DNA from: Tachypleus tridentatus
Taxonomy: Eukaryota > Arthropoda > Merostomata > Xiphosura > Limulidae
DNA: 64,000 bases
Assembly: GCF_004210375.1 (NCBI RefSeq)
Contig: NC_134825.1
Coordinates: forward strand, 42,898,348 to 42,962,347
Reading direction: 5' to 3'
Shown: positions 31,001-60,900 of the stretch, one piece after another
How positions within the stretch are numbered: position 1 is the stretch's first letter
How the letters are laid out: every line of letters begins with the position of its first letter
Translations under genes and position numbers: made by a program
The notes under the pieces: model-generated
What the model saw: the letters and a program-made list of their open reading frames with translations, nothing else
Databases searched by the model: none
Told to the model about the DNA's origin: nothing

Positions 31001-34000
31001 TTTGGAGGGGAGAATTTGCACAACAACTAAAACTGCTACCCACATCTTACCTACTCCTCAAACCTATGCTGCAGTGAAAGATGAGAATATTGATTTATGG
31101 ATTCTTCAGAATGTTGAATAACTTACGTTTTATTAAATTATAAAAGAAAAGATCAGTAGAAATAAATATTTATTAACTGTAAAACCTATTTAGGTTTAAG
31201 TGAAATTTTTTGTAACTAATATTTCTTTATGAGACAACAATGTTCTCTTAAAACTACATTATTTAAAATTATGTTGTTGATTTTTTGCCAGAACATTCCA
31301 TTTTATTTGTATAATTTCGTTTAAGCTATTACACAAAAATGTTTACAGCAAATGGTATTTCAGATAAAGAGATACCCAAAAGAAGTGCCAAAATTATAAT
31401 TTTCCTATGCTGAAAATAAACTTTCAATGCATATTTACCTCCTCTCACACAACTAGGTATTTTCGTTCAGTGCTGCCATCTATATGCATAATTGTTTTGC
31501 AGGCCACAAGCTTTGAGCTCCACATACTTTACAATCGACTGATGCAAAAGTGTCTTACATGCAAATCATCATGCAACACCCATCTCCTAATAAAAGTGCA
31601 TCATACTTTCCTGATGCATGTGACTGACTCTCTATATTCAATTCTACTAAACTATCAGTTCTAGTTTTGGCAGAAAATAGCAGCACCAGTTTTCAGTAGG
31701 AAGGAAGAGTGAGAAAGGTAAGTAGTGCCTATCAGAAATATATTTTCAGTATAGGAAAATAATAGTTTCTGATATGATACATTGCTTTCTCTCACATAAA
31801 TAGCTAGAATCCCACCCTGAATAGGTGAATGGACTAATGCAAGGAAATATAAGAAATATCTTTCAAAGGCATCCAAAGGACACCCTAAAAGTGTAGATCC
31901 TCACAACACAGGATCATATATGGGAGACCATACCACTCCTGTATCTGGTTACTTATCGCCTGGTATGGAAAGAGGTATTGCAGACACGAGCAGAAAACAT
32001 CAACAGCTAGAATCCCGAAGAGAATGGGTGAAGGGACTGATGCAAAGAAAAGAAATAAGCATCCAAAGGAAACCTTAAAAGAGTAGATCCTCACAGTATG
32101 GGATCATATATAGGAGACTAGACTGCTTCTGTACAAGGTATACTCTTTGCCCAATGTGGAAAGAGATATCACAAACATGAGCAGAAAATGGGAGGAACTC
32201 CTCCAAAAGAGGAATAACAGTAGTTGGATAGGGATTTGAACCACACAATATTGGAACCTCAATCCCTTAAAGTACACCAATGTGTGTGAGAGTAAAAGGA
32301 TGTGCCTCAGGTGTAAGTAAGTCAACTGAATACAAAATACAAGTCACCAGAAACTGACATCCATGCAGGGGTAGAATAAGTATCATACTGTCATTAAGTC
32401 AACTACAATCCAAAACCCAGGCCACTGGGAACTGACATCCACATGGAGTAGGAAAGAGGAGTATACTGGCAGTAAGTAAACTACAATCCAAAACCTAGCC
32501 TCATGGTAGGGGAAAGAATGAAAATTGTATCATCTTGGCCTCAATATTATCAGACCTCTACTGTCTCAAAAACAAAATACTTAGCATAAACCCTCTTATC
32601 CAGGGAAGAAGGGAACCAAATACTGAGAAGAAGAGATATCATGTAACAAAGAAGAACGTGGATCATAAAAGTTCAGTTTGTCATATTCAGGAGAAAAAGT
32701 GGCAAGATTAGGAGAAGCAGATTGACTCACATAACAATCAATATCACAGTGGATGATAGATAGGAAGTGAAAAAATGAGTCACCTTAATGTGTAGCCTGT
32801 GTGAGAATGCTAGTTGAAGGTATGGTATCTGAAGTGGTAACTTGAATATTGGAATTCATTGTATAAAATTGAAAGTCAAACACAAGTGTTTGATTTAAAA
32901 AAAAAAAAAAACTGAGATAATAAGTTATCTAAAAAGTTGTTAACTGTTGAAAAGAAAAATTAACAAAATCCACTTTAGAATAATAACTAAAAAATCTCAC
33001 AAAGTTGATTAAATTTGAAGAGCACAAAGAAAACACACCTTGACACGAGTACTGTCAAATGAGAAATGAGTTCATTAGAATCAAAGAGAGAAAATCACAT
33101 TTATCAGGAGAGTGTGCTGCACTCTTATTGGTGAAGTATTGTCACATGATATTTACATTTAAGATGCATTTAAATCAGTTAAGTGTAAAGTATGTAGGAA
33201 ATCAAGGCTTGTGGCATGCAAAAATATATTTTTGTATATATAGGGCTGCACTGAATGAGATTAGTATTTATGTGAAAGGAAGTAATGTACTACATCAGAA
33301 ATAAAGTTTTTGTGACAGCTTTTGCATTGTCATGGTTTGTTTGAAAAACAATTAATATATAGTATGTTTTACTTGTTTAAGAAACCTAATGTTCAGAAAA
33401 ATAATTTTATGAAAACAGCTTTTTTGTGTGCTATGTAGTATAACCATACACTGTAATTCTTTAGCTGTTGTGATATTCAAAGTCAGTTTTACATTTACTT
33501 GGAATCAGTACAGGCACCAGCTGCTTCATACAAGTGTCAGCAGTAGTAATGCAAATGGTGACAAGGCAACAATCTGTCTCTGTCATTCTAAAATACTGTT
33601 AGTGATAGATACTAGATAAACAATAATACTAACTGTGAGATCACTCACAGTCAATCACATTTATATCATAGTTAAAGAGAGGTGACTTTTCACTTTTATA
33701 AAATTAAAACTTCTCCAGTATTATAATCAATTTTATACCATAATTCACTCTTCAAAGAGCAAGAGATAGTGAGTTACATATTTTATATCTCGACCATGAC
33801 GACTTAATGTCAATAATAATTCACATTTGTGATGCTCTTTCCAAAACTAGCTCTGCACAGATAACAAAACTTTTTTGCACTTCAATTCAAATATTTAAAG
33901 ATGTTTATTAGTGTCAGAGATAATTAATAAGAAAACATAGTCATAATTCAATCTTATTTATGTGTAAATCATCAACTAAAATATATTTTAGTAATTTCTT

Positions 34001-37000
34001 TAAACTAGATTTAAGCCTTCAAAATAAGTATTAACTGAATATATGCACAGCTTGAGTGTATTTATTATATTTAAGCTTGGTTTTGATTTGTTTGGAATTT
34101 CTTGTAAAGCTATGCCATGCCTATCTGCACTAACTACTCATAATTTAGCAATAAAAACAAAACAGAAAGCTGCTAGTCATCACAACCTGCTACCAACTCT
34201 TTTTTCCAACAAATAGGGGGACTAACTGTCACTTATTATAATGCCCCCAATGCTGAAAAGGCAAACATGTTTGGTAGGACAAGGATATGATATTTAAGTA
34301 ATCTAACATCAGAATTATCTATACTGAACTCGAGCTGTATTGTACATATCTCTTGGTTTGTAAATACATGTCTAACACAATCTGTGCAACTGATATTTTG
34401 ATTTTTCTATTTCTGTAATATGGAGTTTTAAACTAGAAGTTAAGATCAATATTGTATCTGTTGTCTTGACAATGCTAGTTTTTACCTTGATAGCATACCA
34501 ACTTACACATATGCTCGAAGTAATAAATCTACAATTAAATTGCATATTCTTATTTTGTTGTTGTTGTTGCTTTATATTCTTTATTACTTGAACTTACAAT
34601 ATTAAACTAATTAAAATAACGACAGCAAATCAAACACATTACCCTTCTTGTTCAATTTGCAAGGAGAAGGTTTTCTTAGGTAATTTAGGAAGTAGTGACG
34701 AACAATTCCCTAGAGAGTCTTCTTCTGAACCAAAACCATTATATGATGGGTGTTGATTTTTAAGTGAGAGGATGTTGTCTTTCTGAGGCATATCAAGAGG
34801 CTTCATTGCTGATAGTCATTAAAATATTATAAGAAATAAATATCTAATTGTTTTTTACTTTTAACATATTATTACTACAAACCTAATAATGCAAAAATGA
34901 CTGATAACATTGCATACAAATTCCCCTTTATATTTTTCATATGAAGCCACTCATTGTAAGCTTCATACAAAACAACTCATGAACAGAAACAGTAAAACAA
35001 CATACAGCTATTATCCTATTTTATAATTTTAACATACCTAAAAGTAACTCATAAGTGTACTTTAACAAGCATAATTAAAACAACTGTTTCATTTTCAGAA
35101 TTAACCAAAAATAAATCATGTGTTGTAGTTTATACAGGTTCATAACACCTGAGGAATGTGCAAGTTTGCATTCCCCTTTAATTTTTATATTGTGTGAAGC
35201 TAAATAAAAGTTTAATTTTGTTTTCAGAATTAACCAAAAAATAAATCATGTGTTGTAGTTTATACAGGTTCATAACACCTGAGGAATGTGCAAGTTTGCA
35301 AAAAAAATTATTATTAGAAAGTATTTTTAAAACCTTTTGTTAAAAAGTTTCAAACATAATTTTTTTCTACACCAAATATGTATTTCCAATTGGTACTTAC
35401 CTCCTTTCACAAGATTAACTATTATTTTTCATTGCTATTCTCTGAATGCAAACTTTTTCTTTACACATGCCACAAGCCTTGTGCTCTCCCCTTGTTGGAA
35501 TAGTACATTCCAACATATCTCTCATGCATCATCTGTCAACCAATAGTAGTATAGTATGCACACTTAACAAATGTAATTCCCTTTACCGAACCTTCACTTC
35601 AAAGTTTGGCAAAAGATGTGTGCACTGGAAAAGTGGTGAAGAAGGGTGGGAAGTGTGAGAAATGCATTTTCAGTATAGAAAAATTATAACTTCCAACATG
35701 GACCTACCTTCTCTCACAAGATTAGCTATAACCCCACACTAAGAAGGAGGAGGTATCTATGCAAGGGAACAATAAAAGCACTATTTGAAATGTCTGAAGG
35801 ATATCCTTGACCATAAGAAAAGAGTTCTGATGACCAGAGTAGGGGAACCACACTTCTTCTGAAGCAGGTACTCACTACCCATGTGTATACATTTGTAAAA
35901 TACAAAGACATAAATCATGAGGTGCAGAGTGGCTATGCACATCAGACTATACTCAGCAAGGTAATCACATCCAAAAAAGTGCACAGAGTGAACACAATAT
36001 CCTATTTTGAAAAGCAGACTATACACAGTTCTTCACTCAAAGCATGGCAAGGATGGGTGAGGGAGAGGAACTGGCATGTCTGCTGAAGTATGAAAACCAC
36101 TGCAGAGCATCACACAAAGAAGGAAGAAGGTAAATGGTAGCAAAAGAGGATCCTGTGCAAGGATTTATCATATGTAAAGTACCTACTGCAGGAATCCCAC
36201 ATGGACCCTGAAATATTCAACCTCCTCATGCACAACAGCAGATAAATCCATTGCCAGAGCATGTGCACCTGAGGCCCACAAAAATGCCAGTTGTTGGTGT
36301 AACTCCCAATGTGGTAGGATAACTTCATAATACCTTGCACAGAAAAGTTTCACAAAATTTGAGTGCAAAATAAAGCAAGTTTAATTAACTGAGAAATTAA
36401 AAAAATTGAATGACTTAAGAAATCAAATGAAGTTGAAAATGAACCACTTCACGAGGAAAACAAAATCAAACACATAGCAATAAATAAATAAAAATAAAAA
36501 GTACATATGACCATGAACACTACCAAATAAGATGTGAAGGTAGAGACATATGCATCACATGATGATTTGCATGAGAGATACATTGGAATGTACTATTTCA
36601 ACAAGAGGAGAGTGCAAGGCTTGTGGCATGAGTAAAGAAAAATTGAACAAGAATAGCTAATCTTGTGAAAGGTTTATTTCTTTTCTGAATGTTGTGCAAA
36701 GCTACAAGAGGGCTACCTGCACTAGCTTTTCCTAATATGGCAGTATAAAATTAGAGGGAAAGCAGCTAGTCATCACCACCCACCACCAACCCTTTGGTTG
36801 GCCATAACATTGTAATGTTCCCAAGGCTGAAAGGGAGAGCATGTTTGGTGTGAAAGGGATTTGAACCCACAAACCTCAGATTGTGATTTGAGTGCTCTAA
36901 CCACCTGGCCATGTCAGACCACATATAAAAGGAGGTAATTACAGTATCAGAATTTAATATATAGAAATACATCAACAGTAGTTGCATTAAAATTATCATT

Positions 37001-50700: not shown

Positions 50701-53700
50701 TTTCATAGCATAGCTTTCAGGTATGATTCAAACGGAATGCAGCTTTCATTATGCATCAGATCAAAAACTTGTGAAGTGAATATTGAGAACATAGAATAAT
50801 ATCAAATAAAAATTTACCTTGTGTCATACAGCTATTAGAAACAGGAGGTTCAACAACTTGCATAGTATCATCTTCCAAATAATAGTATATCTTACATTTC
50901 CGAACTCTGTATGTTTCCTCCTGACTTTCATAAATAGGTTCAGTGAAATATCCATAGAAGCATAAAATCTGGAATACAAAGATTTATTAAAATAGTTATA
51001 ACAATTTATAGTTTAATAAAACTTAAAAATTACACATTCTTGTAATACTGCAATAAGATACAACAAAAGAAGTAAATATTTTATCTCTTCACTTTATATA
51101 ATTTTGATGAAGAAGATTGTGTTTTACATACTCTAAATGATGATATATGTTTATATAAAACTGTCTTTTACATTGATTTGAAAAATATGTAGAAAAAAAG
51201 TACTATTTAAAGAAACAATGCAACTGAAAGATAAAAACATGTAATATTTTTCAAAAATAATTATTTACCAAAGCAAGCTATAGAAAATTCTGCAAACTTA
51301 CTCAGGTATACCTGTCAAGTTCAACACTGTCCACAATAATTACATTTTTATTACTTTAAAATGCCTGCAGTCATACTATTGCTTCCTATAGATTCAATGT
51401 CATGTAGATTCAAGTTATTTTATTTGATGCAGTAGATTCTTTGTCTTAAATTCACACAACATTAAAAAACAAGAGATATTTTGGTCCATGGGTCATCCAA
51501 TCCACCAAGTTAAACACTAAGAAACTTAAAGTTAGCCCTTATTATTCAAATATTTATTATGCTTTCTGGTCCTTTTCAGCTCCTTCCAGAAATACACCAC
51601 CACATCATTGGACATTAAAAATTGTATGAAAGTCACAACTTTTTTCTTCCAAAATGGTGATTTTCTGTAAGAAGGTAAAATCCTAACAAAGTGTAAGAGT
51701 TCATGAAGGAGTGAATTTTGCAGAGAATAACTGCAAAGTCCAGTCTAGGAAAAAGATATACTAGATGAAAAGTATGCAACTGTGACATTAAGGTTACAGC
51801 ATCAAGCATTTACAATATGAAAGAACATATAAAAATGGTGTTACGTCAACAAATTGTTTTTCTTTTGTTTTAACGTTTATTATCACTGTTATTGAATGGC
51901 TTTGGAAAGAACTAATTTGGTTTGAACTTATAAACATTTATCCTCACTCCTTAACTGTTTGAGAAAGGTATGTTGCACTTGCCTCCAAGGACATGAAACA
52001 ACTGTACTCAAACAATGACCCAGAATAGAGCCACTCCATTTTTGAATTATGAGAAGACAGTGAACCCTTTCCATTAACAATATACTGAGCTGATATTGAT
52101 AAAAAAGGAGGGCATTGCACCCCCTTCTCCAGCCAGATAGCCTAGCATCAAATCTGAACTGTTATTATGAATAGGTTCCTGCATAGGCTTGTGCCATTCC
52201 TACCAACATTCTGTGAAAAACATCCAGGAACCTTGATAGTAGGGCTCATAATTTCACCCTCTTCTCCAAGAGTGAAAGAAAATCCTCCATCTACAACAAC
52301 AATGACTGGAAATTGGGTTTGGTAAGGACTCTGAAGCTCCACTACTAGAATCTGGGGGGTAATGGGCATTGGAGAGTCCTGAGGAATAGTGCAAAAGGTA
52401 AACCAAGTTCTCTAAATTTATAAAACAGACCCACCCTGATTTATTCAACCCCAAAAAAATCTTGGACAGGCATGATCCCCTTATGCTTTACTCATGACAG
52501 TCCATGAGTGGCAGTCCCTCATATTACAGTAATACTACCCAGTCAGCCTCTAGGTGGTCTTATGTAACACTCCATTTCTACAGAGCCTCTTGCAACTTCT
52601 AAAAAGTATATGGAATTAGTGGTTGCTAGTGTGGAATTGGTTTGATAAAAGCATGCCTACCTGGGAAAATCTCGCCATAGAGTTGGATCCAGTGAAAAAA
52701 AGAGAGGTAAGGGACCCTGTTAAGTAAAGGAACAAAAGGGGTTAAAAAAATACCACTCATTATAATCTAGTTGATGTAGTCAAAATGGTCATAGGTGGTA
52801 GTTAAAAACATTCAGAGGAGAAAACTGCCAGATCATGCAAATAATGTAACTATAAAAGTGTCAGAAGAAATCCACATAACAGCCTGTATGATGTCCTTTA
52901 GTGTGCATTTCAACCTGGCAGCTAACAAATTTGATGCAATGAAACTCACAGAAATTTCCTTACCTGCAAAGAGAGCCCAGAATAAACAATATGGATCAAT
53001 ATTTGAACCCAGCTCATCAAGGTAAACAGAGATATCTTACAGTAAACAAAAGCATCCTAATGAATAAAACATCAGTGCCTACCCCTCAAAAGGAGATAGT
53101 ATAAGCCATATACCACTTAAGGGTCCTAGACTGAGCATAAAAAGCAATCAGGAACCAACCAGCCTCAGATGTGAGTAATAGCAGGCAAATGAATTGGTGA
53201 GAATTTATCCCCTTCTCTTGCTGCCAGAGGCTTAGATAAGAAGTACCTATCTCAGTGTAGAAGGACACAGAGTGAAAGAGTCCTGTGCACATGCAGTGCA
53301 AACAACTTTGACCTACAACATCCACAGGCCAGTAACAACAATAGATAAACTTTAAGGATACAGTGATATATGGCACATAAGGCTAATGGTTTAAATGTAT
53401 GTCAAGACAAAGCATGTAATATCACCTTAATATACTAGTAACTGAAAGGTCTTTTGGGGCAAAGGACATGAAAAGACTTAATAAGGCTGGATAGAACTGT
53501 GAACTCAAATAATTTCTTAACTTTTGAATATCAAAATGTAATTAATAAGGCTGTGTTATATAAGACAATTGTAGATGGTGTTTTGTCACAAAGCTAGGTC
53601 AAAAAATGAGTTACAGTTGGCATATTTGAGCAAAGTGAATTCTATTTCCTCATAAGACACTATTGTTGATAAGTATGCCATTGCCTTTGATAACTGCTAC

Positions 53701-56283
53701 AGTGACTCTATGAAAATAGTGAGACAAATATATGGCAACTTTAGAAGCTAAACTCTGATGTTGCACAAAAGACCATATAACTTCAATGTGTGAAGCTTGA
53801 GCATCATCATGTCTGGGTGTATATAATCTTGTATCAGGGTTGCCTCAACATTGGTGGGCATTCATGAAGATACTGAAGAAGAGGAAACTATGATTGAGCC
53901 AACCAATCTGTGGCTTCCAACAGCACCTGACAAGGGGTGGATCAAAATATAGCCAGAACCCTGGATATCAGATAAATTGGAAGAAAGACATAGGGGATGC
54001 AATCCTTCCAGTCCTGACTGAATGCATCTGTTGCCAATGCCTAAGTGTGAGGTAGTGATAGCCAAAATGTCTATAGTTGAGAGTTCCAATGAGTGACAAA
54101 TGTATCAAATATCAGTGTCCTGAACAAGGAGCAAATATGCCAGAAAACCTCTTGATGTAGCATTCATTCAGTCAGGGGAATCCAGTTATGTTGAGACAAA
54201 TGATCTCCTACCAAACTCATCACCCCTGGAACATGGCAAGCTACGAGGCTAATATAAAGGAGTGAGTCCAATAAAGAAGATCCAATGTTTGAACACAAAG
54301 CTACCATGATCAAGTGTCCCCTTGATGGGAAATATAAGATACCACCATGGAACTTTCAAAGAAAAGCATGTTAATTTTTCTTTTAAAATTCTAGACATTG
54401 AGACATTTCCCTCTGACAAGTGACAAGATCTAAAATATTGATGTAGAAGGAAGATTTATTGCCTATCCATAAGTGCTGAAATTTCTGACTGGTGATGTAT
54501 GCACCTCATCCCTGAACTAAGGCATCTGTGAAGAGATGGATCTCAGGATGAGGTGATAGTAGAGGAACATCAACTGCAGTACTGTTCTGATCTAATCTCT
54601 GCTGAAAATCTAAGATGTTGATCTTGAAGGATACTGGGTGATCCATTGGATCAATATTCATGTAGGGATCTCATGTGTGTCTGTTCCAAAGGAATAAGAA
54701 ATTCAAAGTATGCCTACATCTCCAAAAACAGAAAAAGCTATCCACTCAGTGGGAGAAGGAGATGTGAGTAGGAGTTTGACTGCCCATTCAATAGCATTGA
54801 GCCAGGTGGGATTTGACTGATCTCAAATTAGATTCATGTTGATAAAGACACTCAGATGGATAATGTACTGAGTTGGCACAAGAATGTATTTCTTGGCTCT
54901 GATAATAAATCCTGCCTTGGTGGCTGCTAAAAGAAGAATCTGAGTAGATAGTGCCAAGAGTAATAAATCAAACACATAATAGTGTGTGCACAATACTAAA
55001 ACATTATGGAGAAAAGAAAAGGCTCATATTATTTTGCAGAACATATATGGCAAAGATCCTAGTCCAAAGGGTTCAGCTTTGAATTGCAGTACCTGACCAT
55101 TTTACACAAGATGTAAATAGCAGCAGGATGGCTTTACTAAGAAAATCAGGCAACACTGAACTTGGTCATCCACAACCTGATTAAAAATGCCAATTTTAGG
55201 TGAGGAGTGACTCTTTTATGAGCCTGGGAGGATCTACGGATTGGTTAAGAAGAGAAAAATCAGTGATCAGACACCAATCTCCCATCGTCTTGAGCACAAC
55301 AAATAAACAGGAATAAAATCCCAAAAGAACTAGGTCAACTCTTTCTATTGCTCCCTGAATCAATAATTCATTTATAGTCATGGAATGAAGGTCCAAAATA
55401 CAAGGTTCTAATGGAGGTAGAAACAATACAGATCAAGGGAATAATAGTGGTGGAGATGAAAACTGAATGACCAACTCCAATGCGAGCACCTGGAATACCC
55501 ATGGATCTGTAATAAAAGAATTCCTTATGCCCAAAAAATGTTGTAACCATCCTCCAACAAACCTCCCTAGTAACAGTCTGCTAAAGTGAAGGAGCCTCTT
55601 TGATAAGAACAGAATTTATTCTGGGTTCCAATGAATCAAAAGGTTGAAGTCTTTGTACTTTCTTAGAGAAACCCAATCCTAAATACTTTATTGAGAAAAA
55701 GTGATAACATTATCTGAATAAGGTGTTTATATAAAGGACTAGGATAGAGGATGCACTAACACAGGTGAAGAGTGTTACAGGATAAATATTGCTAAGGGCA
55801 ATTGAAGGGGTCTAGTAAAACTGAAGCATACAAGAAAAAAATAGATCAGTGCTTAGATTGGTGAAGGAAGAAACCCTAGAAGTTGAGTAATAATTATAAA
55901 GGCATAAGTTTGTTTTAGAATTATATTGCTTTGCTGACTTTTTGTTACTTAATATTAATGTCACTGATGGACCAGATGCTTTCATTTCTCCTGCCTACTT
56001 TGATGGAATAATTAAGTATAATTGACATGAAATTATTATAGGCAGGAATAAAGGATCTAATACCACATGTATTTTAGAATCCAGAAAATAATATTTTCAA
56101 GCATTTCATTTTCTTGAAACTGTACCACATAAATGAAATGGGTTTCACCTGCTTGTCAAAATATCTCCATGCATCATGTCTTCCACAGAAATTGGACTTA
56201 TTAACATCTCTGTCACTTGAAACAAAAGGAACACTCTTGACAAATCCAAAATGCTGCTTTTTGTGATGGCTGGGCTCATAAAT
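9956..56283 (-). CDS. EFHC2: EFHC1/EFHC2-family ciliary protein, spliced gene (14 exons seen)
   Basis: Joining 14 minus-strand exons gives an open 708-residue frame ending in TGA. Every junction is GT/AG and every phase matches. Residues below count from the first base of the exon at 56283. DM10 domain 1 covers about 41-165, domain 2 about 186-333 and domain 3 about 390-499. An EF-hand helix-loop region follows (loop DADDTGYISFQH near 532-543), with a second degenerate EF-hand near 640-655. Family knowledge: EFHC1/EFHC2 (Rib72 in algae) are microtubule inner proteins of the axonemal doublet A-tubule, and EFHC1 is linked to juvenile myoclonic epilepsy. EFHC1 is about 640 aa and EFHC2 about 750 aa. 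The tail beyond the EF-hand, with the block LIDWGKNP, favours EFHC2, although the linker LLPKLPKK also resembles EFHC1. The usual N-terminal LPxLPG motif is missing, so the 5' coding end is incomplete. Introns range from about 0.3 to 11.3 kb and are packed with transposons. Confidence 0.93.
10058..10779. other. EFHC intron, nothing recognised
   Basis: The last intron of the EFHC gene is AT-rich. It holds no protein-like frame; the 60-codon frame at 10290-10472 lacks family resemblance. Confidence 0.6.
10780..10879 (-). CDS. EFHC2: EFHC exon: second degenerate EF-hand
   Basis: 100 bases, phase 2 to 0, residues 642-675. It encodes VTDEDGNVEYHNFIKLIDWG followed by KNPS. The match to IDYKSFFSALNWRKNP of vertebrate EFHC2 is clear and is the best evidence against EFHC1. 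Acceptor cattgtag, donor CAG|GTAAGA. Confidence 0.92.
12490..13140 (+). pseudogene. Fragment of a repeated transposon-type protein (decayed)
   Basis: Frames read AMKPVHHGNDLPVPHTP, then, after a stop, SMKTTLCFCANVDALMEELG, EWRFFTDSSKVTLKAVLLY and GNSEPS. I recall a family common in arthropod genomes with the blocks LPVPxPP, SLxxxxCYCxDVxxLMxxLG, EWRLFIDSSKxSLKAVLLHNGN. Here internal stops and shifts break the frame, and it ends at the GN-PS block. The class is unnamed to me. It is an intron insertion in the EFHC gene. Confidence 0.6.
13470..13700 (-). mobile_element. tRNA-derived SINE (family A), minus orientation
   Basis: Reverse-oriented copy of the 9020 SINE: CTACAAGAGGGCTATTTGC, GAAGGCAGCTA, ACTCTTGGGCTACTCTTTTA, and the tRNA head ending CACCTGGTCATGTCAGGAC. 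The B-box region is diverged. Confidence 0.85.
14560..16345 (+). mobile_element. CR1/L2-type LINE with decayed reverse transcriptase
   Basis: Frames, broken by stops and shifts, read ALGPDNTSSRVSKEVKD, VDEDKSVTLVYLDFQKASDK and VPHRRLVKYL, then KDLGVIVEQSPEPSKQC, YRPHLEYCVQF, DLIEVFKIK and NRVLFLWNWLPLV. These are in order the fingers, palm (YLDFQKAFDKVPH), thumb and C-terminal blocks of CR1/L2-superfamily reverse transcriptases. The YADD block is changed to a YDIQ-like text near 15550. No endonuclease is present, so the copy is 5'-truncated. It sits in the EFHC intron between 10879 and 17151, in the opposite strand sense to the gene. Confidence 0.9.
17151..17243 (-). CDS. EFHC2: EFHC exon: C-terminal helical segment
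   Basis: 93 bases, phase 2 to 2, residues 611-641. The frame fixed by the flanking exons reads RTQRLSKKKVYITCRIFHLP, then VAMDVLLTLLDR. This aligns with the RLCKSSRLPLSDDLLESLLSR part of EFHC2. Acceptor ttttcag, donor GACAG|GTAAGA. Alternative frames look open on either strand but break the splice phase. Confidence 0.88.
18093..18293 (-). CDS. EFHC2: EFHC exon: C-terminal EF-hand region
   Basis: 201 bases, phase 2 to 2, residues 544-610. It encodes GTKLTQHEILTIARRYRKQ and FLVAFVQNELRKKDFSDFEN, comparable to LAEQEFVTIARHYR and FLIALAHEKFKKNMFENF of EFHC2. EFHC1 lacks a segment of this length here, which supports the EFHC2 assignment. Acceptor atttcag, donor GAAAG|GTAAGT. Confidence 0.93.
19175..19370 (-). 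mobile_element. Highly diverged family A SINE
   Basis: AGAAGGCAGCTAGTTAACAG, then AACTCTTAGGGTACTCTGT, CTGTTGGATG and CGAACCACTACACTAC follow the family A order in reverse. The tRNA head is barely recognisable. Diverged relative of the SINE at 13470. Confidence 0.6.
20300..20545 (+). mobile_element. Penelope-like element 3' tail with hammerhead-like core
   Basis: The text GAACCTGATGATGACCGAAG then AAGGTTGAAACGTTGTTCGC is a tail I associate with Penelope-like retroelements, which are known to carry minimal hammerhead ribozymes. CTGATGA (20454-20460) and GAAAC (20476-20480) fit the conserved core. Between them GACC and GGTT can form stem II around GAAGAA. No reverse transcriptase is visible beside it, so this is only the tail. 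Confidence 0.55.
21367..21500 (-). CDS. EFHC2: EFHC exon: helical linker and EF-hand
   Basis: 134 bases, phase 0 to 2, residues 500-543. The EF-hand-like loop DADDTGYISFQH has Asp at loop positions 1 and 3, Thr at 5, Gly at 6 and Ile at 8. It ends in His where a canonical EF-hand has Glu at 12, so calcium binding may be weak. Acceptor ttcaaag, donor TTTTAG|GTACGT. Confidence 0.93.
22440..23850 (+). mobile_element. Non-LTR retrotransposon (I/Jockey-like) 3' end with RNase H
   Basis: From 23131 the frame reads DVIIYTNGFLLEDEVSEIG, an RNase H start (D-G-x..E), then TSIFKA-IISIKEV with the expected Glu mutated to a stop. A later block resembles HVWEPQKTKKL, like the final RNase H motif H-x-P-G-N. 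Upstream (22590-22860), text such as HLIYKTTLTICHTCMDLY fits the end of a reverse transcriptase ORF. Many stops and shifts. Which LINE clade is uncertain. Confidence 0.65.
25550..25737 (-). CDS. EFHC2: EFHC exon: DM10 domain 3, second half
   Basis: 188 bases, phase 1 to 0, residues 437-499. It encodes GLAGGKFLERGKV, YYTVSDMYIGAVLNI and LLTDADEFALNYMEQ, matching the GGKYLGRTKV and DTDEYVLKYME blocks of human EFHC proteins. Acceptor tatatag, donor CAG|GTATGT. Confidence 0.95.
26438..28000 (+). pseudogene. piggyBac transposase relic
   Basis: The frame opens near ATG 26772 with an acidic Ser/Glu/Asp-rich N-terminus. It then reads VVVLAGVYISKNETAPK, YDNFFTTLKLAMKFL and FPKKIKAVMLLNATHDQ, then KKPVMM. 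These match the piggyBac DDE transposase order (ILxGVYRSK, DNFFTS, AVxLLSTMH, KKP). Stops and shifts break it repeatedly, so it cannot be active. A possible left end is TTAA at 26434-26437 followed by CTCTAGAATTACT, but I see no matching right end. It lies in the EFHC intron between 25737 and 28799. Confidence 0.8.
28799..28941 (-). CDS. EFHC2: EFHC exon: DM10 domain 3, first half
   Basis: 143 bases, phase 2 to 1, residues 389-436. It contains DVLRFSCCLVT, TFILSYFLSDNTIQIYEPP and QNSG, the standard opening of the third DM10 domain. Acceptor cttacag, donor TTCAG|GTGAGT. The acidic pair seen in domains 1 and 2 (EDD) is SDN here. Confidence 0.95.
28942..31380. other. EFHC intron, AT-rich, nothing recognised
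   Basis: Long AT-rich stretch with short frames only. None has recognisable protein motifs and I see no terminal repeats. Confidence 0.5.
31386..33312. mobile_element. Unclassified element with long inverted ends and tandem interior (copy A)
   Basis: The left arm (about 31386-31610) and the reverse complement of the right arm (about 33060-33312) share the order: TTTACCTCCTCTCACA-like end, GTTCAGTGC, GCCACAAGC, CACATACTTTACA. Inside, a unit with AGCTAGAATCCC, GGACTRATGCAA, AGTAGATCCTCAC, GGATCATATA and GAGCAGAAAA occurs twice (31799-31990 and 32003-32190). A second tandem of about 84 bases with CAATCCAAAACC and AACTGACATCCA follows (32310-32520). There is no coding frame of note. It lies in an EFHC intron. 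Confidence 0.65.
34081..34290 (-). mobile_element. Truncated family A SINE
   Basis: Body blocks GTAAAGCTATG, TATCTGCACTA, AAGCTGCTAGTCATCACAAC, TATTATAATGCCCCCA and GCTGAAAAGGC, then breaks off within the tRNA head. Degraded. Confidence 0.75.
34643..34808 (-). CDS. EFHC2: EFHC exon: linker with the YNGFGSEEDSL signature
   Basis: 166 bases, phase 1 to 2, residues 334-388 plus two bases. It carries PSYNGFGSEEDSLGNC, the most diagnostic family motif, then LLPKLPKKTF. It links DM10 domains 2 and 3. Acceptor ctatcag, donor GAAGG|GTAATG. The completed codon GG|A (Gly) in the next exon confirms the phase. Confidence 0.95.
35092..35300. repeat. Near-perfect direct duplication of 79 bases
   Basis: 35092-35170 and 35221-35300 are the same apart from one inserted A: TTTTCAGAATTAACC at the start, GAGGAATGTGCAAGTTTGCA at the end. 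The offset is about 130 bases. The identity implies a recent tandem duplication in this intron. Confidence 0.9.
35345..36674. mobile_element. Unclassified element with long inverted ends (copy B)
   Basis: The left arm from 35403 (CCTTTCACAAGATTA, ACATGCCACAAGCCTTG, CTCTCCCCTTGTTG, GTACATTCCAA, ATCTCTCATGCA) is matched by the reverse complement of the right arm, 36560-36672, with one gap of about 25 bases. A forward motif, TTTTCAGTATAGAAAAATTA (35669-35688), is followed by a second unit start, TCTCTCACAAGATTAGCTAT (35712-35731). Interior text is shared with copy A (31.4 kb) and with 58.3-59.3 kb. A SINE lies directly against its right end. Confidence 0.7.
36674..36920 (-). mobile_element. tRNA-derived SINE (family A)
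   Basis: GCAAAGCTACAAGAGGGCTA at the tail, AAGCAGCTAGTCATCACCAC in the body, and a tRNA head reading on the minus strand TGGCCAGGTGGTTAGAGC (A box) and GGGTTCAAATCCC (B box). It abuts the right end of the long-inverted-repeat element, so one probably inserted at the edge of the other. Confidence 0.9.
37239..37377 (-). CDS. EFHC2: EFHC exon: DM10 domain 2, second half
   Basis: 139 bases, phase 0 to 1, residues 288-333. It contains YRDSDLRIGVTINVWGR and LLYDCDEFTKQYY, a near-exact match to the second DM10 domain of EFHC2. It ends in KYGLG, equivalent to KYGIE. Acceptor ttccag, donor CTGG|GTAATT. Confidence 0.95.
38173..38271 (-). CDS. EFHC2: EFHC exon: variable loop of DM10 domain 2
   Basis: 99 bases, 33 codons, phase 0 to 0, residues 255-287. 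It encodes a Gly/Asn-rich stretch, then IVLNTFGDSEKNGWY, the counterpart of AVLNSYGDF in EFHC2. Acceptor catgcag, donor AAAAG|GTAAAT. This is the least conserved exon. Confidence 0.88.
38704..38955 (-). CDS. EFHC2: EFHC exon: DM10 domain 2, first half
   Basis: 252 bases, 84 codons, phase 0 to 0, residues 171-254. It encodes RPYEKVDTLKQFL, YYCLWDD, ILHYYLEDDSIEI and LRRSKLPK, each nearly matching the second DM10 domain of vertebrate EFHC2. The open frame runs a few codons past the donor AAAG|GTAATT. The acceptor ttttag precedes TTAAAAGCC; an internal ATG at 38943 is not a start. Confidence 0.96.
39253..39476 (-). CDS. EFHC2: EFHC exon: second half of DM10 domain 1
   Basis: 224 bases, phase 1 to 0, residues 96-170. 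It completes Gly from G|GA, then encodes TLIRRHHF, the DM10 motif VNIYGKDFKIVDCDKFTRSF and the linker EDPYTENRKK. This ordering (RRxR, GxxFxIxDCDxFTR) is typical of DM10 domains. Acceptor atcag, donor AAG|GTATGT. Confidence 0.95.
39905..40720 (+). mobile_element. Ty3/gypsy LTR retrotransposon, integrase-end fragment
   Basis: Decayed frames read FAEMCQILGIK, TTALHPSSNTVWMN (equivalent of TTALHPQSDGxVERFN), VRREMKMPLDLL, TDYVEIKEH, RCWKELYAVLKRINDEIYGT and KPKIIHSDCLLKYDG. This is the C-terminal integrase core and tail of Ty3/gypsy Pol, in order. Stops and shifts are frequent, and no LTR or upstream Pol is seen. It lies in the 11 kb EFHC intron. Confidence 0.8.
40876..41114. mobile_element. Foldback MITE, 239 bases, TA target site
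   Basis: Arms of about 97 bases (40876-40972 and 41017-41114) are inverted copies: CAGTCAAAG at one end, CTTTGACTG at the other, then GACAGTTGTG-AGCATGTA, ATATAGAGC and TTGGATCT. TA flanks both sides (40874-40875, 41115-41116), as for Tc1/mariner/pogo elements. Similarity continues about 10 bases outside the TA (TTTTCCTC against the reverse of GAGAAAAA), so the true ends may lie further out. Confidence 0.85.
42487..42703. mobile_element. piggyBac-type MITE, 217 bases, TTAA target site
   Basis: Perfect 15-base terminal inverted repeats CACTCCTACGAAAAG / CTTTTCGTAGGAGTG are flanked by TTAA on both sides (42483-42486 and 42704-42707). Just inside the right end is a perfect palindrome, GGGGCCTATTAGGCCCC (42671-42687). 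No coding capacity. TTAA with short terminal repeats is the piggyBac signature. Confidence 0.92.
44312..44373. repeat. 62-base hairpin with TTAA-like flanks
   Basis: CCCTTAGATAGCAG at the left pairs with CTGCTATTTAAGGG at the right, with TTGA before and TTAA after. It resembles a minimal piggyBac-type MITE but is very short and its internal loop is unrelated. Confidence 0.6.
45000..46068. other. Decayed, possibly once-coding sequence, origin unknown
   Basis: Base composition is less AT-biased than the surrounding intron and many short frames persist on both strands, for example 45872-46108 on the plus strand. I cannot match any to a family. It may be a processed copy or transposon interior. 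Confidence 0.3.
46070..47030. repeat. Tandem duplication, one copy split by a SINE
   Basis: The unit TTGCTTGATTTATATAACTG, GATACAAAACT-GGACAGCTG, CCATGG, TTCCTGAGCACTCAG starts near 46271 and again near 46792. Excluding the SINE the period is about 233 bases. A further smaller repeat, TTTCCAAGCTATCA (46077 and 46205), lies upstream. Confidence 0.85.
46433..46712 (-). mobile_element. tRNA-derived SINE (family A) with 8-base target duplication
   Basis: The best-preserved family A copy. The target-site duplication TGCAAGTT occurs at 46425-46432 and 46713-46720. The tail carries TGTTTGTTTG repeats, the body CAACTCTTGGACTACTC, and the head, on the minus strand, TGGCCAGGTGTGTTAAGGC and GGGTTTGAATCC. 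The empty site is preserved in the second tandem copy near 46953. Confidence 0.93.
47031..50817. other. EFHC intron, AT-rich, little recognised
   Basis: Contains a (GT)/(AT) microsatellite at about 47746-47778 and otherwise AT-rich text with short uninformative frames. No element or exon recognised. Confidence 0.5.
50818..50968 (-). CDS. EFHC2: EFHC exon: first half of DM10 domain 1
   Basis: 151 bases, residues 46-95 plus one base of a split Gly codon (phase 0 to 1). It contains the DM10 core motifs YRVRKCKIYYYLEDDTMQV and VEPPVSNS. The acceptor is ttccag and the donor CAAG|GTAAAT. The upstream intron holds the DIRS element; the downstream intron is the longest in the gene, about 11.3 kb. 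Confidence 0.95.
52050..55900 (-). mobile_element. DIRS-type retrotransposon (tyrosine recombinase), decayed
   Basis: Read on the minus strand from about 55.4 kb, the relics appear in DIRS order. Reverse transcriptase comes first: ELLIQGAIERVD, GFYSCLFVVLKT, LITDFSLLNQ. RNase H follows near 54.5 kb: LFTDALVQG-GAYI, then SSFYINILDL. A block like VPGxMSLVGDxLSQHNWIP lies near 54.2 kb. The tyrosine recombinase is near 53.3 kb: ILHALS-HTFKPLALC, LLLLACGCCRSKLFALHVHR, ending in an HYLHDLAVF-like block near 52.8 kb. Stops and shifts are many. Termini are not resolved. It lies in the EFHC intron between 50968 and 56149, in the gene's orientation. Confidence 0.82.
56149..56283 (-). CDS. EFHC2: EFHC exon: N-terminal segment leading into DM10 domain 1
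   Basis: 135 bases, 45 codons, phase 0 at both ends. The acceptor is ttacaacag and the donor CAG|GTGAAA. The encoded KKQHFGF matches the KSQHWGF block near the EFHC2 N-terminus, and the exon ends in YFDKQ, equivalent to FDKQ at the start of the first DM10 domain. The intervening variable linker is shorter than in vertebrates. Confidence 0.9.
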
Positions 56284-58189: not shown

Positions 58190-60900
58190 AGTTGCTTAAG
58201 CAGCTTCATGACTTTTTGTCTCTGATGCAAATCATCATGTGTCACTTGGTACCTAACAGCAGCATGAATATGCATATGGCTCCCTCTACACTCTCCTACC
58301 TAACCCTCTCTTCAAAGTGTAACAGAAGGTAAATACCTATTGGAAGTACGTTTTCAGCAAAGGAAAATTATAACTTCCAGTTCTTTGATATGGAAGAGGG
58401 ACTGGTACAAAAGAGAAACATAGATAGCCATGAAAGTTTCCAAAGGATATCTCTTATCATGAGAAAAAAAGTGGGGGCAACACACCACTTCTGAAATACT
58501 CTTTGGCCTTGTGTATAATTCATAAAACACAAGGGCAGAAAACATGTGGCTAAAGTGGTGGAGCTTACATGGCAGGTAAACATCTTCTGGTACCACCTCT
58601 ATGAGAAACTGACATCTCGTGAGGGTAAGATGAGGAACATGCCTACTTCACTTCAAACCCAGAAACTGGGGATTACAATCTACACCAATTCCAAAATGTT
58701 TCTACTCATGTGAAGACTTATGCAGACCTATTCACTCTAGTACAAAACCTCTTCTCCAGGTAACCAATATCCTGTGAGAACAAGATAAGGATCTATTCCA
58801 CATGTGCAAATGTAATATGGATGCAACTAGTGTAAAAAATGTAAGGATTAGTTCACTCAGTCCTAAACCTCCTTTACAAGGAATTGGCATCATAAAAGGG
58901 TAAAATGAGCACACTAAATCTGTACATGTAACACCAGTGAGGGCCACATATTTTTGTGCTTTATTTTACACTGCTTTACTCTCAACTGAAAAGTTATAGT
59001 CATCTCTGTGGAACCCATCCATGAGAGAGCCTCCATGGTTCACACTCCAGTAACTTGAAACTGGAAAGTGGCAAGGACTCCTGTACTCAAGTTGAAGAAG
59101 AGAAGAAATAGCACACTGGGGAGTCTGAAGGACCTTGTTACTAGAGACAGTACAATGGGTGACCATGAAACTCCCTTTTGAAAACCAGACCATACCACCC
59201 ATAGATTAGAGGAGTAAAACAGACAGAAATAACTACCCATTCTTATCATGCCTTGAGTGAAGAACTCAGTGTGTTATGAAGCAATTATTGTGAGATTATT
59301 CTCCAACAAAAAGATGCTGCAGCAACTATATAAGACCAATGATCTCTGCAGGTAAAGAGGAGAGGGAATACCCTTGAAGGAAAGGGGAAGTGAATAGCAC
59401 AATACAAGAGATGCAAACAGAGGTAAAGTAATGGAATAGAGTACAACATGAATATACAATTCAGAATTACTGAAATACAGAGGCAGCCAATGCATTCAAA
59501 AAAGTAAAATAAGAGCTAAGAACAGGAAAAGGAAAGATGATGTGGTAACAAATAACAAATGGAATGAGGAATAAGAAACAACACCCAACATAAGATTCAA
59601 ATCATTCTGTCAGGAACAGGACAGTAACCAGGTGTGAAGATGAAGGACAGTAAAGTTGGGATGTAGATTCCTTGGAATTGATCAAAGAAGGAATAATGGA
59701 AGAGGTAGCAGAGGAATAAGTGAAACTGAAACAAGAAAAAGACCAGAGTTAAGCAGGCTAGGAAGGAACAATCTAAAGAACAATAATTGAATGTCAAGTA
59801 GAAGGGAGATGAATGAACAAAGCAGAAGTCTGAAGGCATCCTATGTACGTACAATATCAAATTAATCTGACCATCGTGAGCCCAAAATATCCAAAAGGAA
59901 AAACATGGGGATCCTGACTAGGTGCATCCATGAAAATATGAGCCACAACTATAAGTGATCAGATTGAAACATGACCAATTAATTTGAGGGAGCAAAAAAA
60001 GACCCTGGCATGGCCAGGAATCCTAAAGGGAAAGAAAGGAGCAGGCATGCTGGACCTGGGAGGAAAAAGAAAAGGATAAAGAAACCATATGACAAAAGAC
60101 CAAAACTCAATGAAATATATAATGGTTCCAGTGATAAACAAAGTCAACAGATGAGATCCCACCTGACAGCCTCCAGAACCGATATTGGTGTGCTTTACAT
60201 CTTTGAGAAAATTGATTAACTTTGGCACAGCAGGAAAAAGGAAAAGTAATGACAGAAAACTGGTTGACAAAAAGAGGTTGCATACATGGTGCAGACTTGG
60301 ACAAACATGTCACCAGAGAAGAAAGAATGGAAAATTGTTGGACTGAATACACACTAGATGCCAGGACTTTGAAAAAATAATAAATATGTCATGTAAAAAA
60401 ACAAGACCACATGTGGAGTCCATAGAAAAGGAGTCTGAAAATATGGTCCATGAAATAAGATCTCATGGCCAAAAATATCTCGTTAACAAAGAAACTGTGG
60501 TTATAAGGTCAAAGCTAAAGACAACAGGAGGGCAAACAGAAAAGTAAAGATGGAGAAGAATCCTGCAGGAAATCCTTCTGGGATATATAAATGAATGAGA
60601 GAAACTGCAATAATCAGAGTTAGATATTAAAGATGGGAATGCAGTGCCCCAGTGAGCCATACAGGAGTTCTGGAATATGTTCCACAAACCAGTAAAATGA
60701 ATGCAATATATGTAAAGTCCATTAAAGATAGTTTAACCATTGAGGGGCAGCAGACTGATCTGAAGACCATGGAGGACAAGGAAAACTAATGTAGTCTCCA
60801 AAAAGGAGGCAAAACATAAAGCATAAACCCAAAAATTAGGAAAAAGTGTGTGTGATGTGTATATATATATATATATTGTAAAGGGAAGAAGGCATAACTA
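58190..60900. repeat. Repeat block related to the long-inverted-end family, then purine-biased sequence
   Basis: 58329-58375 carries the forward motif ACCTATTGGAAGTACG, TTTTCAGCAAAGGAAAATTA. 58380-58560 matches the interior of copies A and B. 58590-58900 holds degenerate repeats with GAAACTGACATC, CACTC-AGTACAAAACCTC and GGGTAAGATGAG. 59230-59265 matches copy B (36017-36060) in inverted orientation. From about 59300 the plus strand is strongly purine-rich, and the opposite strand gives spurious hydrophobic open frames. An (AT)n microsatellite lies near 60856-60876. Confidence 0.55.

What the first reader, a model, noticed from the sequence alone, without database searches (positions are those of the whole stretch)
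31386..36674. Unclassified repeat family with long terminal inverted repeats and internal tandem units
Two copies 2 kb apart (31386-33312, 35345-36674) each have inverted arms well over 100 bases. They share the motifs CCTTTCACAAGATTA, GCCACAAGC and TTTTCAGTATAGGAAAAT, and interior units repeated in tandem. Neither copy codes for a protein. The inner start of each unit (CTCTCACAAGATTAGCTA) recurs about 300-350 bases inside the left end, so ends and interior appear to come from one module. I know no named family with this layout. It might be a non-autonomous relative of the DIRS element at 52 kb, since DIRS elements can have inverted ends, but I saw no shared terminus.
Basis: partly seen in the sequence, partly recalled or inferred. 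Interest (0 to 1): 0.7.

Follow-up and report, generated by a model that had tools for sequence, protein, structure and literature searches.

The report
Decayed DIRS1-like retrotransposon copies
The two odd repeats with inverted ends are old, internally deleted copies of a known kind of jumping gene (a DIRS1-like retrotransposon), so the strange layout is that family's own signature and not a new kind of element.

Summary
The repeats are real but not unclassified. Read on the minus strand, each shows the layout that defines DIRS1-like retrotransposons: inverted terminal repeats (ITRs), a right extension, and beside the right ITR an internal complementary region (ICR) made of the reverse complements of both outer ends. 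In copy 1 the two ICR halves overlap by exactly 3 bases, 31766-31768; these and both termini read TTT/AAA. The start that recurs about 300-350 bases inside is this ICR. Both halves beat shuffles in 25 of 35 right-terminus rows, and in 22 of 30 without loci fetched by the ICR pattern.

Of 29 loci fetched only by DNA similarity to copy 1's other end, 14 carry a DIRS-type RT segment, 14 of 14 on the predicted strand. An RT-bearing member sits in a high-copy repeat; its empty site shows one ATT where the filled site has ATT and CTT at the element's ends.

Copies 1 and 2 are separate internally deleted members. RT, RH and YR names rest on recalled motifs and weak Pfam scores; layout, termini and footprint do not. 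A new member of a known kind; low interest.

The parts
31391..33301 (-). Copy 1 (c1): internally deleted DIRS1-like element, sense strand minus
   Evidence: Termini from aligned copies; TTT at both sense ends; arms
33050..33301 (-). c1 left terminus / left ITR (sense 5' end)
   Evidence: Profile match 33284-33050; inverted to 31435-31633
31391..31677 (-). c1 right ITR with right extension (extension about 31391-31434)
   Evidence: Profile match 31436-31677; 31391-31423 is complementary to the ICR, not to the left ITR
31736..31802 (-). c1 internal complementary region: 31736-31768 pairs with the right terminus 31391-31423, 31766-31802 pairs with the left terminus 33265-33301; 3-base overlap 31766-31768
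   Evidence: Inverted pairs I3 and I4; shuffle test p 0.0025 for each half
31794..32188 (-). c1 tandem duplication of a 200-bp interior unit, single in 10 of 13 relatives, double in 1, not found in 2
32312..32498 (-). c1 tandem unit of about 77 bp, copy number variable in relatives
32454..32563 (-). Place of c1's internal deletion: relative L041 has about 730 bp here, with an RT-like segment
   Evidence: Colinear blocks c1 vs L041; RT in L041 at 453-665
35352..36690 (-). Copy 2 (c2): internally deleted member of a second subfamily; both ends approximate
35352..35617 (-). c2 right ITR with extension
   Evidence: Profile match 35398-35616; terminus by alignment
35659..35735 (-). c2 ICR
   Evidence: Complementary to both c2 ends in local alignments; recurrence 35384-35422 / 35691-35729
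36555..36690 (-). c2 left ITR, outermost bases decayed
   Evidence: Profile match 36671-36555
35976..35978 (-). Place of a c2 deletion: 8 relatives carry 0.70-1.07 kb here
   Evidence: Block coordinates in L010, L015, L017, L023, L025, L030, L032, L036
36053..36204 (-). c2 remnant that in relative L022 overlaps a protein-level match to an RT-bearing member (probable RNase H region)
   Evidence: DNA match to L022 2436-2597; protein match at L022 2472-2579, E 4.4e-6
58215..58379 (-). Third, fragmentary copy: inner part of a right ITR plus ICR
   Evidence: ITR profile E 8e-15 and c1/c2 matches
53653..55615 (-). Degenerate DIRS of another family (RT-like 55199-55432; YR-like 53653-53844); source of the RT seed, not the parent of c1/c2
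   Evidence: Frames; 150 RT-peptide matches in the genome; no ITR block beside it

Best explanation
Both copies are old, internally deleted members of a DIRS1-like (tyrosine-recombinase) retrotransposon family, lying on the minus strand. Shown here: ITRs, right extension, an ICR that joins the complements of both ends with a 3-base overlap, NTT-type termini, no TSD seen, and a base-level empty site for one RT-bearing relative. Inferred from the published DIRS model: the RNA lacks parts of the ends; the ICR serves as template or splint to complete and circularise the cDNA; a tyrosine recombinase inserts the circle by recombining its 3-base junction with a matching NTT in the genome. c1 and c2 lost the coding middle; if the deleted forms ever moved, it was with enzymes from coding relatives.
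For: ICR with exact 3-base overlap in c1. Both ICR halves p<=0.01 in 25 of 35 rows, 22 of 30 without loci fetched by the ICR pattern. 168 genome sites within 3 mismatches of the 38-base joint, 0 for the reversed pattern. RT-like segment in 14 of 29 loci fetched by left-ITR-side DNA only, 14 of 14 on the predicted strand, about 0.8-1.6 kb inside, against 0 of 36 other-end or c2-type loci L002-L008 and L010-L038. YR-like segment in 7 loci and RH-like segment in 4 besides the query locus, all on the predicted strand. No exact TSD in 9 of 9 tested end pairs. Empty site: joined flanks run through the joint in 34 of 40 listed matches; 7 fetched, 7 of 7 uninterrupted, ATT at the joint in 6 of 7.
Against: Profile support for the enzymes is weak: RVT_1 only E 0.0097 in L090 and 0.15 in L084, below Pfam's cut-off; nothing in Pfam for the 4.8-kb RT-bearing element; PF00589 found nothing in the genome; no PDB match. 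Only 3 of the 29 loci showed the RT in the single-sequence search; the other 11 came with the iterated profile. 10 of 35 rows fail one or both ICR halves. c2's ends are decayed and its ICR is imperfect. No copy with intact genes was seen, and methyltransferase and gag were not sought.
Confidence: 0.94

Rival explanations
1. A non-autonomous cut-and-paste or foldback DNA transposon with long composite terminal inverted repeats, in which the inner repeat is just a part of the arm.
For: Long inverted arms and noncoding interiors.
Against: The inner repeat is the complement of both ends joined; no TSD in 9 of 9 pairs; the empty site shows a single NTT; DIRS-type RT, RH and YR remnants in relatives on the predicted strand.
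Confidence: 0.02
2. Short trans-mobilised non-autonomous DIRS subfamilies: deleted forms keeping ITRs, extension and ICR that themselves multiplied using the enzymes of coding DIRS copies.
For: c1, L055 and L047 are of similar short length, roughly 1.6-1.9 kb, with both ends and ICR kept. RT was found in 0 of the 29 c2-type loci.
Against: c1, L055 and L047 do not share one deletion; the c2 deletion point is filled in 8 relatives; RH-like or YR-like remnants occur in some c2-type loci, so these are coding elements in decay.
Confidence: 0.12
3. The inverted arms are independent insertions of a short repeat and do not form one element.
For: Many matches cover only one end.
Against: The two ends have different, specific outer termini and fixed relative orientation; a site holding a whole 2.3-kb relative is uninterrupted in other copies of the target repeat.
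Confidence: 0.01

Closest known systems
DIRS1-like retrotransposons (PMC3266345, passages read)
   Same: ITRs, right extension, two ICR halves overlapping on a 3-base circular junction beside the right ITR, NTT termini, no target duplication, length of coding members about 4.8 kb (C2 element), RT then YR on the sense strand.
   Different: c1 (1.9 kb) and c2 (about 1.3 kb) lack the coding middle; all copies seen are decayed; gag and methyltransferase were not looked for; sequence identity to a named family could not be checked without a repeat library.
DIRS-1 of Dictyostelium (PMC5633606, passages read)
   Same: ICR complementary to the outer parts of both inverted repeats; proposed role as template for completing the cDNA before circle formation.
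   Different: No transcript, circular cDNA or self-targeting was tested here.
Ngaro- and PAT-type elements (described in PMC3266345 and PMC8969392 passages)
   Same: Also tyrosine-recombinase retrotransposons.
   Different: They carry split direct repeats; here the ends are inverted, with an ICR.
TRIM-like non-autonomous retroelements (recalled)
   Same: Short, noncoding copies that keep the ends.
   Different: Those have long terminal direct repeats, and no shared deleted founder was found here.

Membership tests
DIRS1-like retrotransposon | Inverted terminal repeats | tested here: met
   c1 74.5% over 204 columns, c2 89-90%
DIRS1-like retrotransposon | ICR halves complementary to the two outer ends, beside the right ITR | tested here: met
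   c1; 25 of 35 rows with both halves p<=0.01, 10 of 35 not
DIRS1-like retrotransposon | ICR halves overlap on a 3-base circular junction equal to the terminal trinucleotide | tested here: met
   c1: 31766-31768 TTT, sense termini TTT and TTT; not scored base by base in the other copies
DIRS1-like retrotransposon | Right extension complementary only to the ICR | tested here: met
   c1 31391-31434 outside the ITR match, pairing with 31736-31768
DIRS1-like retrotransposon | Termini NTT | tested here: met
   TT at left ends in 29 of 31; right ends CTT/CAT type, AAG-TT read on the other strand with G in 30 of 33 (low-scoring and duplicate rows dropped)
DIRS1-like retrotransposon | No target site duplication; integration at one trinucleotide | tested here: met
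   9 of 9 pairs without exact TSD, one of them (C13:231) with a poorly placed left end, two planned pairs not tested; one empty site
DIRS1-like retrotransposon | DIRS-type RT and RNase H | tested here: inconclusive
   Conserved segments on the predicted strand, but Pfam support weak and PDB none; motif names recalled
DIRS1-like retrotransposon | Tyrosine recombinase | tested here: inconclusive
   Segment with recalled DIRS motif (LLCPVxxLxxY) in 7 loci besides the query locus; PF00589 none
DIRS1-like retrotransposon | Gag and methyltransferase domains | not tested
   No profile at hand; copies decayed
Ngaro/PAT-type elements | Split direct repeats A1-B1-A2-B2 | tested here: not met
   Ends are inverted; within-copy repeats are the ITRs, the ICR and local tandems
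TIR DNA transposon | Target site duplication | tested here: not met

The most novel reading that the evidence does not exclude
This genome holds true non-autonomous DIRS subfamilies: short elements keeping only ITRs, extension and ICR, multiplied in trans by coding DIRS copies, as TRIM elements are by LTR retrotransposons.
Probability: 0.12. Interest if true: 0.4.

Novelty: new member of a known kind. Interest (0 to 1): 0.2.

Why it matters
It removes an apparent unknown: a layout that looked like a new class is the DIRS1 signature in old copies that have lost their genes, which protein-based scans would miss. The joint in the ICR is a usable search signature: one 38-base pattern found 168 sites within 3 mismatches and none for the reversed pattern. 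The empty site gives a base-level view of DIRS integration at a single NTT.

Tried and rejected
Rfam on the window: nothing at gathering scores. Pfam on six frames of 50-60 kb: only a DM10 domain. PF00589 over the genome: nothing. Pfam on three adjoining pieces of the C2:131 element: nothing; on DIRS loci L082, L084, L085: weak RVT_1 in L084 and three other sub-threshold matches (SPRY, Baculo_gp41, CreD) taken as chance; on L090: RVT_1 E 0.0097. PDB with the RT alignment: nothing. The 52-57 kb DIRS as parent: rejected, no ITR block beside it. The block and the downstream RT of L086 as one element: judged not, since the block is the far end of an element on the other side. A deletion shared by c1, L055 and L047: not supported. 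Tandem Repeats Finder: no rows. A first boundary regex found only 17 sites and a fuzzy-regex script timed out; profile-anchored alignment replaced them. In one search some ends of the other type were counted as left ends and the script stopped with an index error after its tables; counts used are. One search gave the real left-half stretch two extra Ts that its shuffles lacked; the test was redone fairly (25 of 35 instead of 24). Dropped as duplicates before that count: L001, L009, L036, L039, L051; so c2 was not in it and was checked separately. The 29 loci include two duplicate pairs (L047/L051, L048/L049), none with RT. C12:35331000-35336271 was taken at first for an element with both ends; its right terminus was not located in the stretch fetched (L078), and the outer right end of C2:131 was not located either.
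Full report
Observation. The arms of c1 are 74.5% complementary over 204 columns, those of c2 89-90%. The quoted motifs are shared only approximately, and tandem units were found only in c1. No open frame of 120 aa lies within the window. The family is abundant: 3424 and 2555 first-look candidates, of which only 40 were scored in each search, so copy number is not known.

Anatomy. Alignment of the ends of fetched loci showed a sharp start, AAGTTATAATTTTCC, preceded by unrelated sequence, and about 270-360 nt inside it an inverted copy of that start, directly followed by a copy of the element's other end. In c1 this is explicit: 31391-31423 pairs with 31736-31768, and 31766-31802 pairs with 33265-33301; the inner stretches overlap by exactly three bases. 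Those three bases, and both sense termini of c1, read TTT. So the inner block is the two ends of the element joined and reverse-complemented. With each copy's own right end (36 nt) and a consensus left end, against 400 shuffles, both halves reached p<=0.01 in 25 of 35 rows (34 loci; right half 27, left half 30). Five of those loci had been fetched by the ICR pattern itself; without them it is 22 of 30. Ten rows fail one or both halves. The 38-base pattern across the joint has 168 matches with up to 3 mismatches in the genome, and none when read backwards.

What that is. On the minus strand the order is left ITR, interior, ICR, right ITR, right extension. [quoted passage not shown] c1 meets each of these noncoding points.

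Coding relatives. I fetched 30 loci by DNA similarity to window 32900-33330; one is c1 itself. Among the other 29 (two duplicate pairs included), a single-sequence search with an RT-like peptide of this window (55199-55432) found 3 (L050, L062, L066), and the iterated profile found 14. In 14 of 14 the segment lies on the strand that the ITR predicts, about 0.8-1.6 kb inside it. The same profile found none in the 36 loci L002-L008 and L010-L038, which were fetched by other parts of the copies. A segment resembling DIRS tyrosine recombinase was found in 7 loci, and one resembling RNase H in 4, besides the locus the queries came from, all on the predicted strand. One RT-bearing element, C2:131856834 to about 131861624, is about 4.8 kb long with left terminus, RT, ICR and part of the right ITR; its outer right end was not located. 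The names RT, RH and YR rest on motifs I recall and on weak Pfam matches (RVT_1 E 0.0097 in L090 and 0.15 in L084, both below Pfam's cut-off). Pfam found nothing in the C2 element, PF00589 nothing in the genome, the PDB nothing. These proteins are heavily decayed.

Integration footprint. In 9 of 9 elements tested, no exact flanking duplication was seen; in one of them (C13:231) the left end was poorly placed, and two more pairs were not tested because a right end was not located. One RT-bearing element, about C2:61348725-61351035, with both termini located, lies inside a high-copy repeat. Its joined flanks gave 40 listed matches: 2 are its own flanks, 4 are short partial matches, and 34 run through the joint. 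Seven of these 34 were fetched: 7 of 7 are uninterrupted, and the joint reads ATT in 6 of 7. Empty: TATAA-ATT-TTGGCAGGG (majority). Filled: TATAA-ATT-CTGATTTGG ... TTACAA-CTT-TTGGCAGGG. One target trinucleotide became one NTT at each end of the element, as the DIRS circle-integration model predicts.

Why these copies look noncoding. c1 is colinear with L041 except that about 730 bp of L041, holding its RT segment, stand where c1 has 110 bp (32454-32563). c2 lacks 0.70-1.07 kb that 8 relatives carry at 35976/35978, and keeps a stretch, 36053-36204, that in L022 overlaps a protein-level match to an RT-bearing member. c1's 200-bp tandem unit is single in 10 of 13 relatives examined, double in 1 and not found in 2, so it is not a family hallmark. 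Short copies c1, L055 and L047 do not share one deletion; I found no evidence that a deleted form has itself multiplied.

Literature. The phrase 'non-autonomous DIRS' gave 0 papers in the held library. Combined-term searches listed 4 and 3 papers; in the passages read of four of them (PMC5633606, PMC8969392, PMC9210276, PMC8498967) no ICR-bearing non-autonomous DIRS family is described. PMC6681497 and PMC7599744 were seen only as listings. This is a limited search and no proof of absence.

Verdict. DIRS1-like membership of the family: about 0.94. c1 and c2 as individually deleted, decayed members: about 0.85. The mechanism (completion at the ICR, circular cDNA, tyrosine-recombinase integration) is taken from the published model; only its footprint is shown here.

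Noticed in passing
   Followed up: partly
window 53653-55615 (-): A degenerate DIRS element of another family: RT-like 55199-55432 and YR-like 53653-53844; its own ITRs were not found. The RT peptide has 150 scored matches in the genome.
   Followed up: partly
window 34154-34290 and about 36690-36925: Two copies of a SINE-like repeat (77-78% alike over 49 and 56 nt), also beside several fetched loci (L042, L044, L046, L060); the second abuts copy 2's right end.
   Followed up: no
window 35107-35170 and 35237-35300: A 64-nt stretch repeated exactly 130 nt apart, just outside copy 2: a recent local duplication.
   Followed up: no
window 50807-50971 (-): DM10-domain match (Pfam PF06565, E 1.3e-13), probably an exon of a host gene.
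   Followed up: no
flanks of C2:61348725-61351035 (L041, L079) and L091-L097: The target repeat is itself a high-copy family (2378 first-look candidates, about 72-76% alike in the matches through the joint) that was not classified.
   Followed up: no
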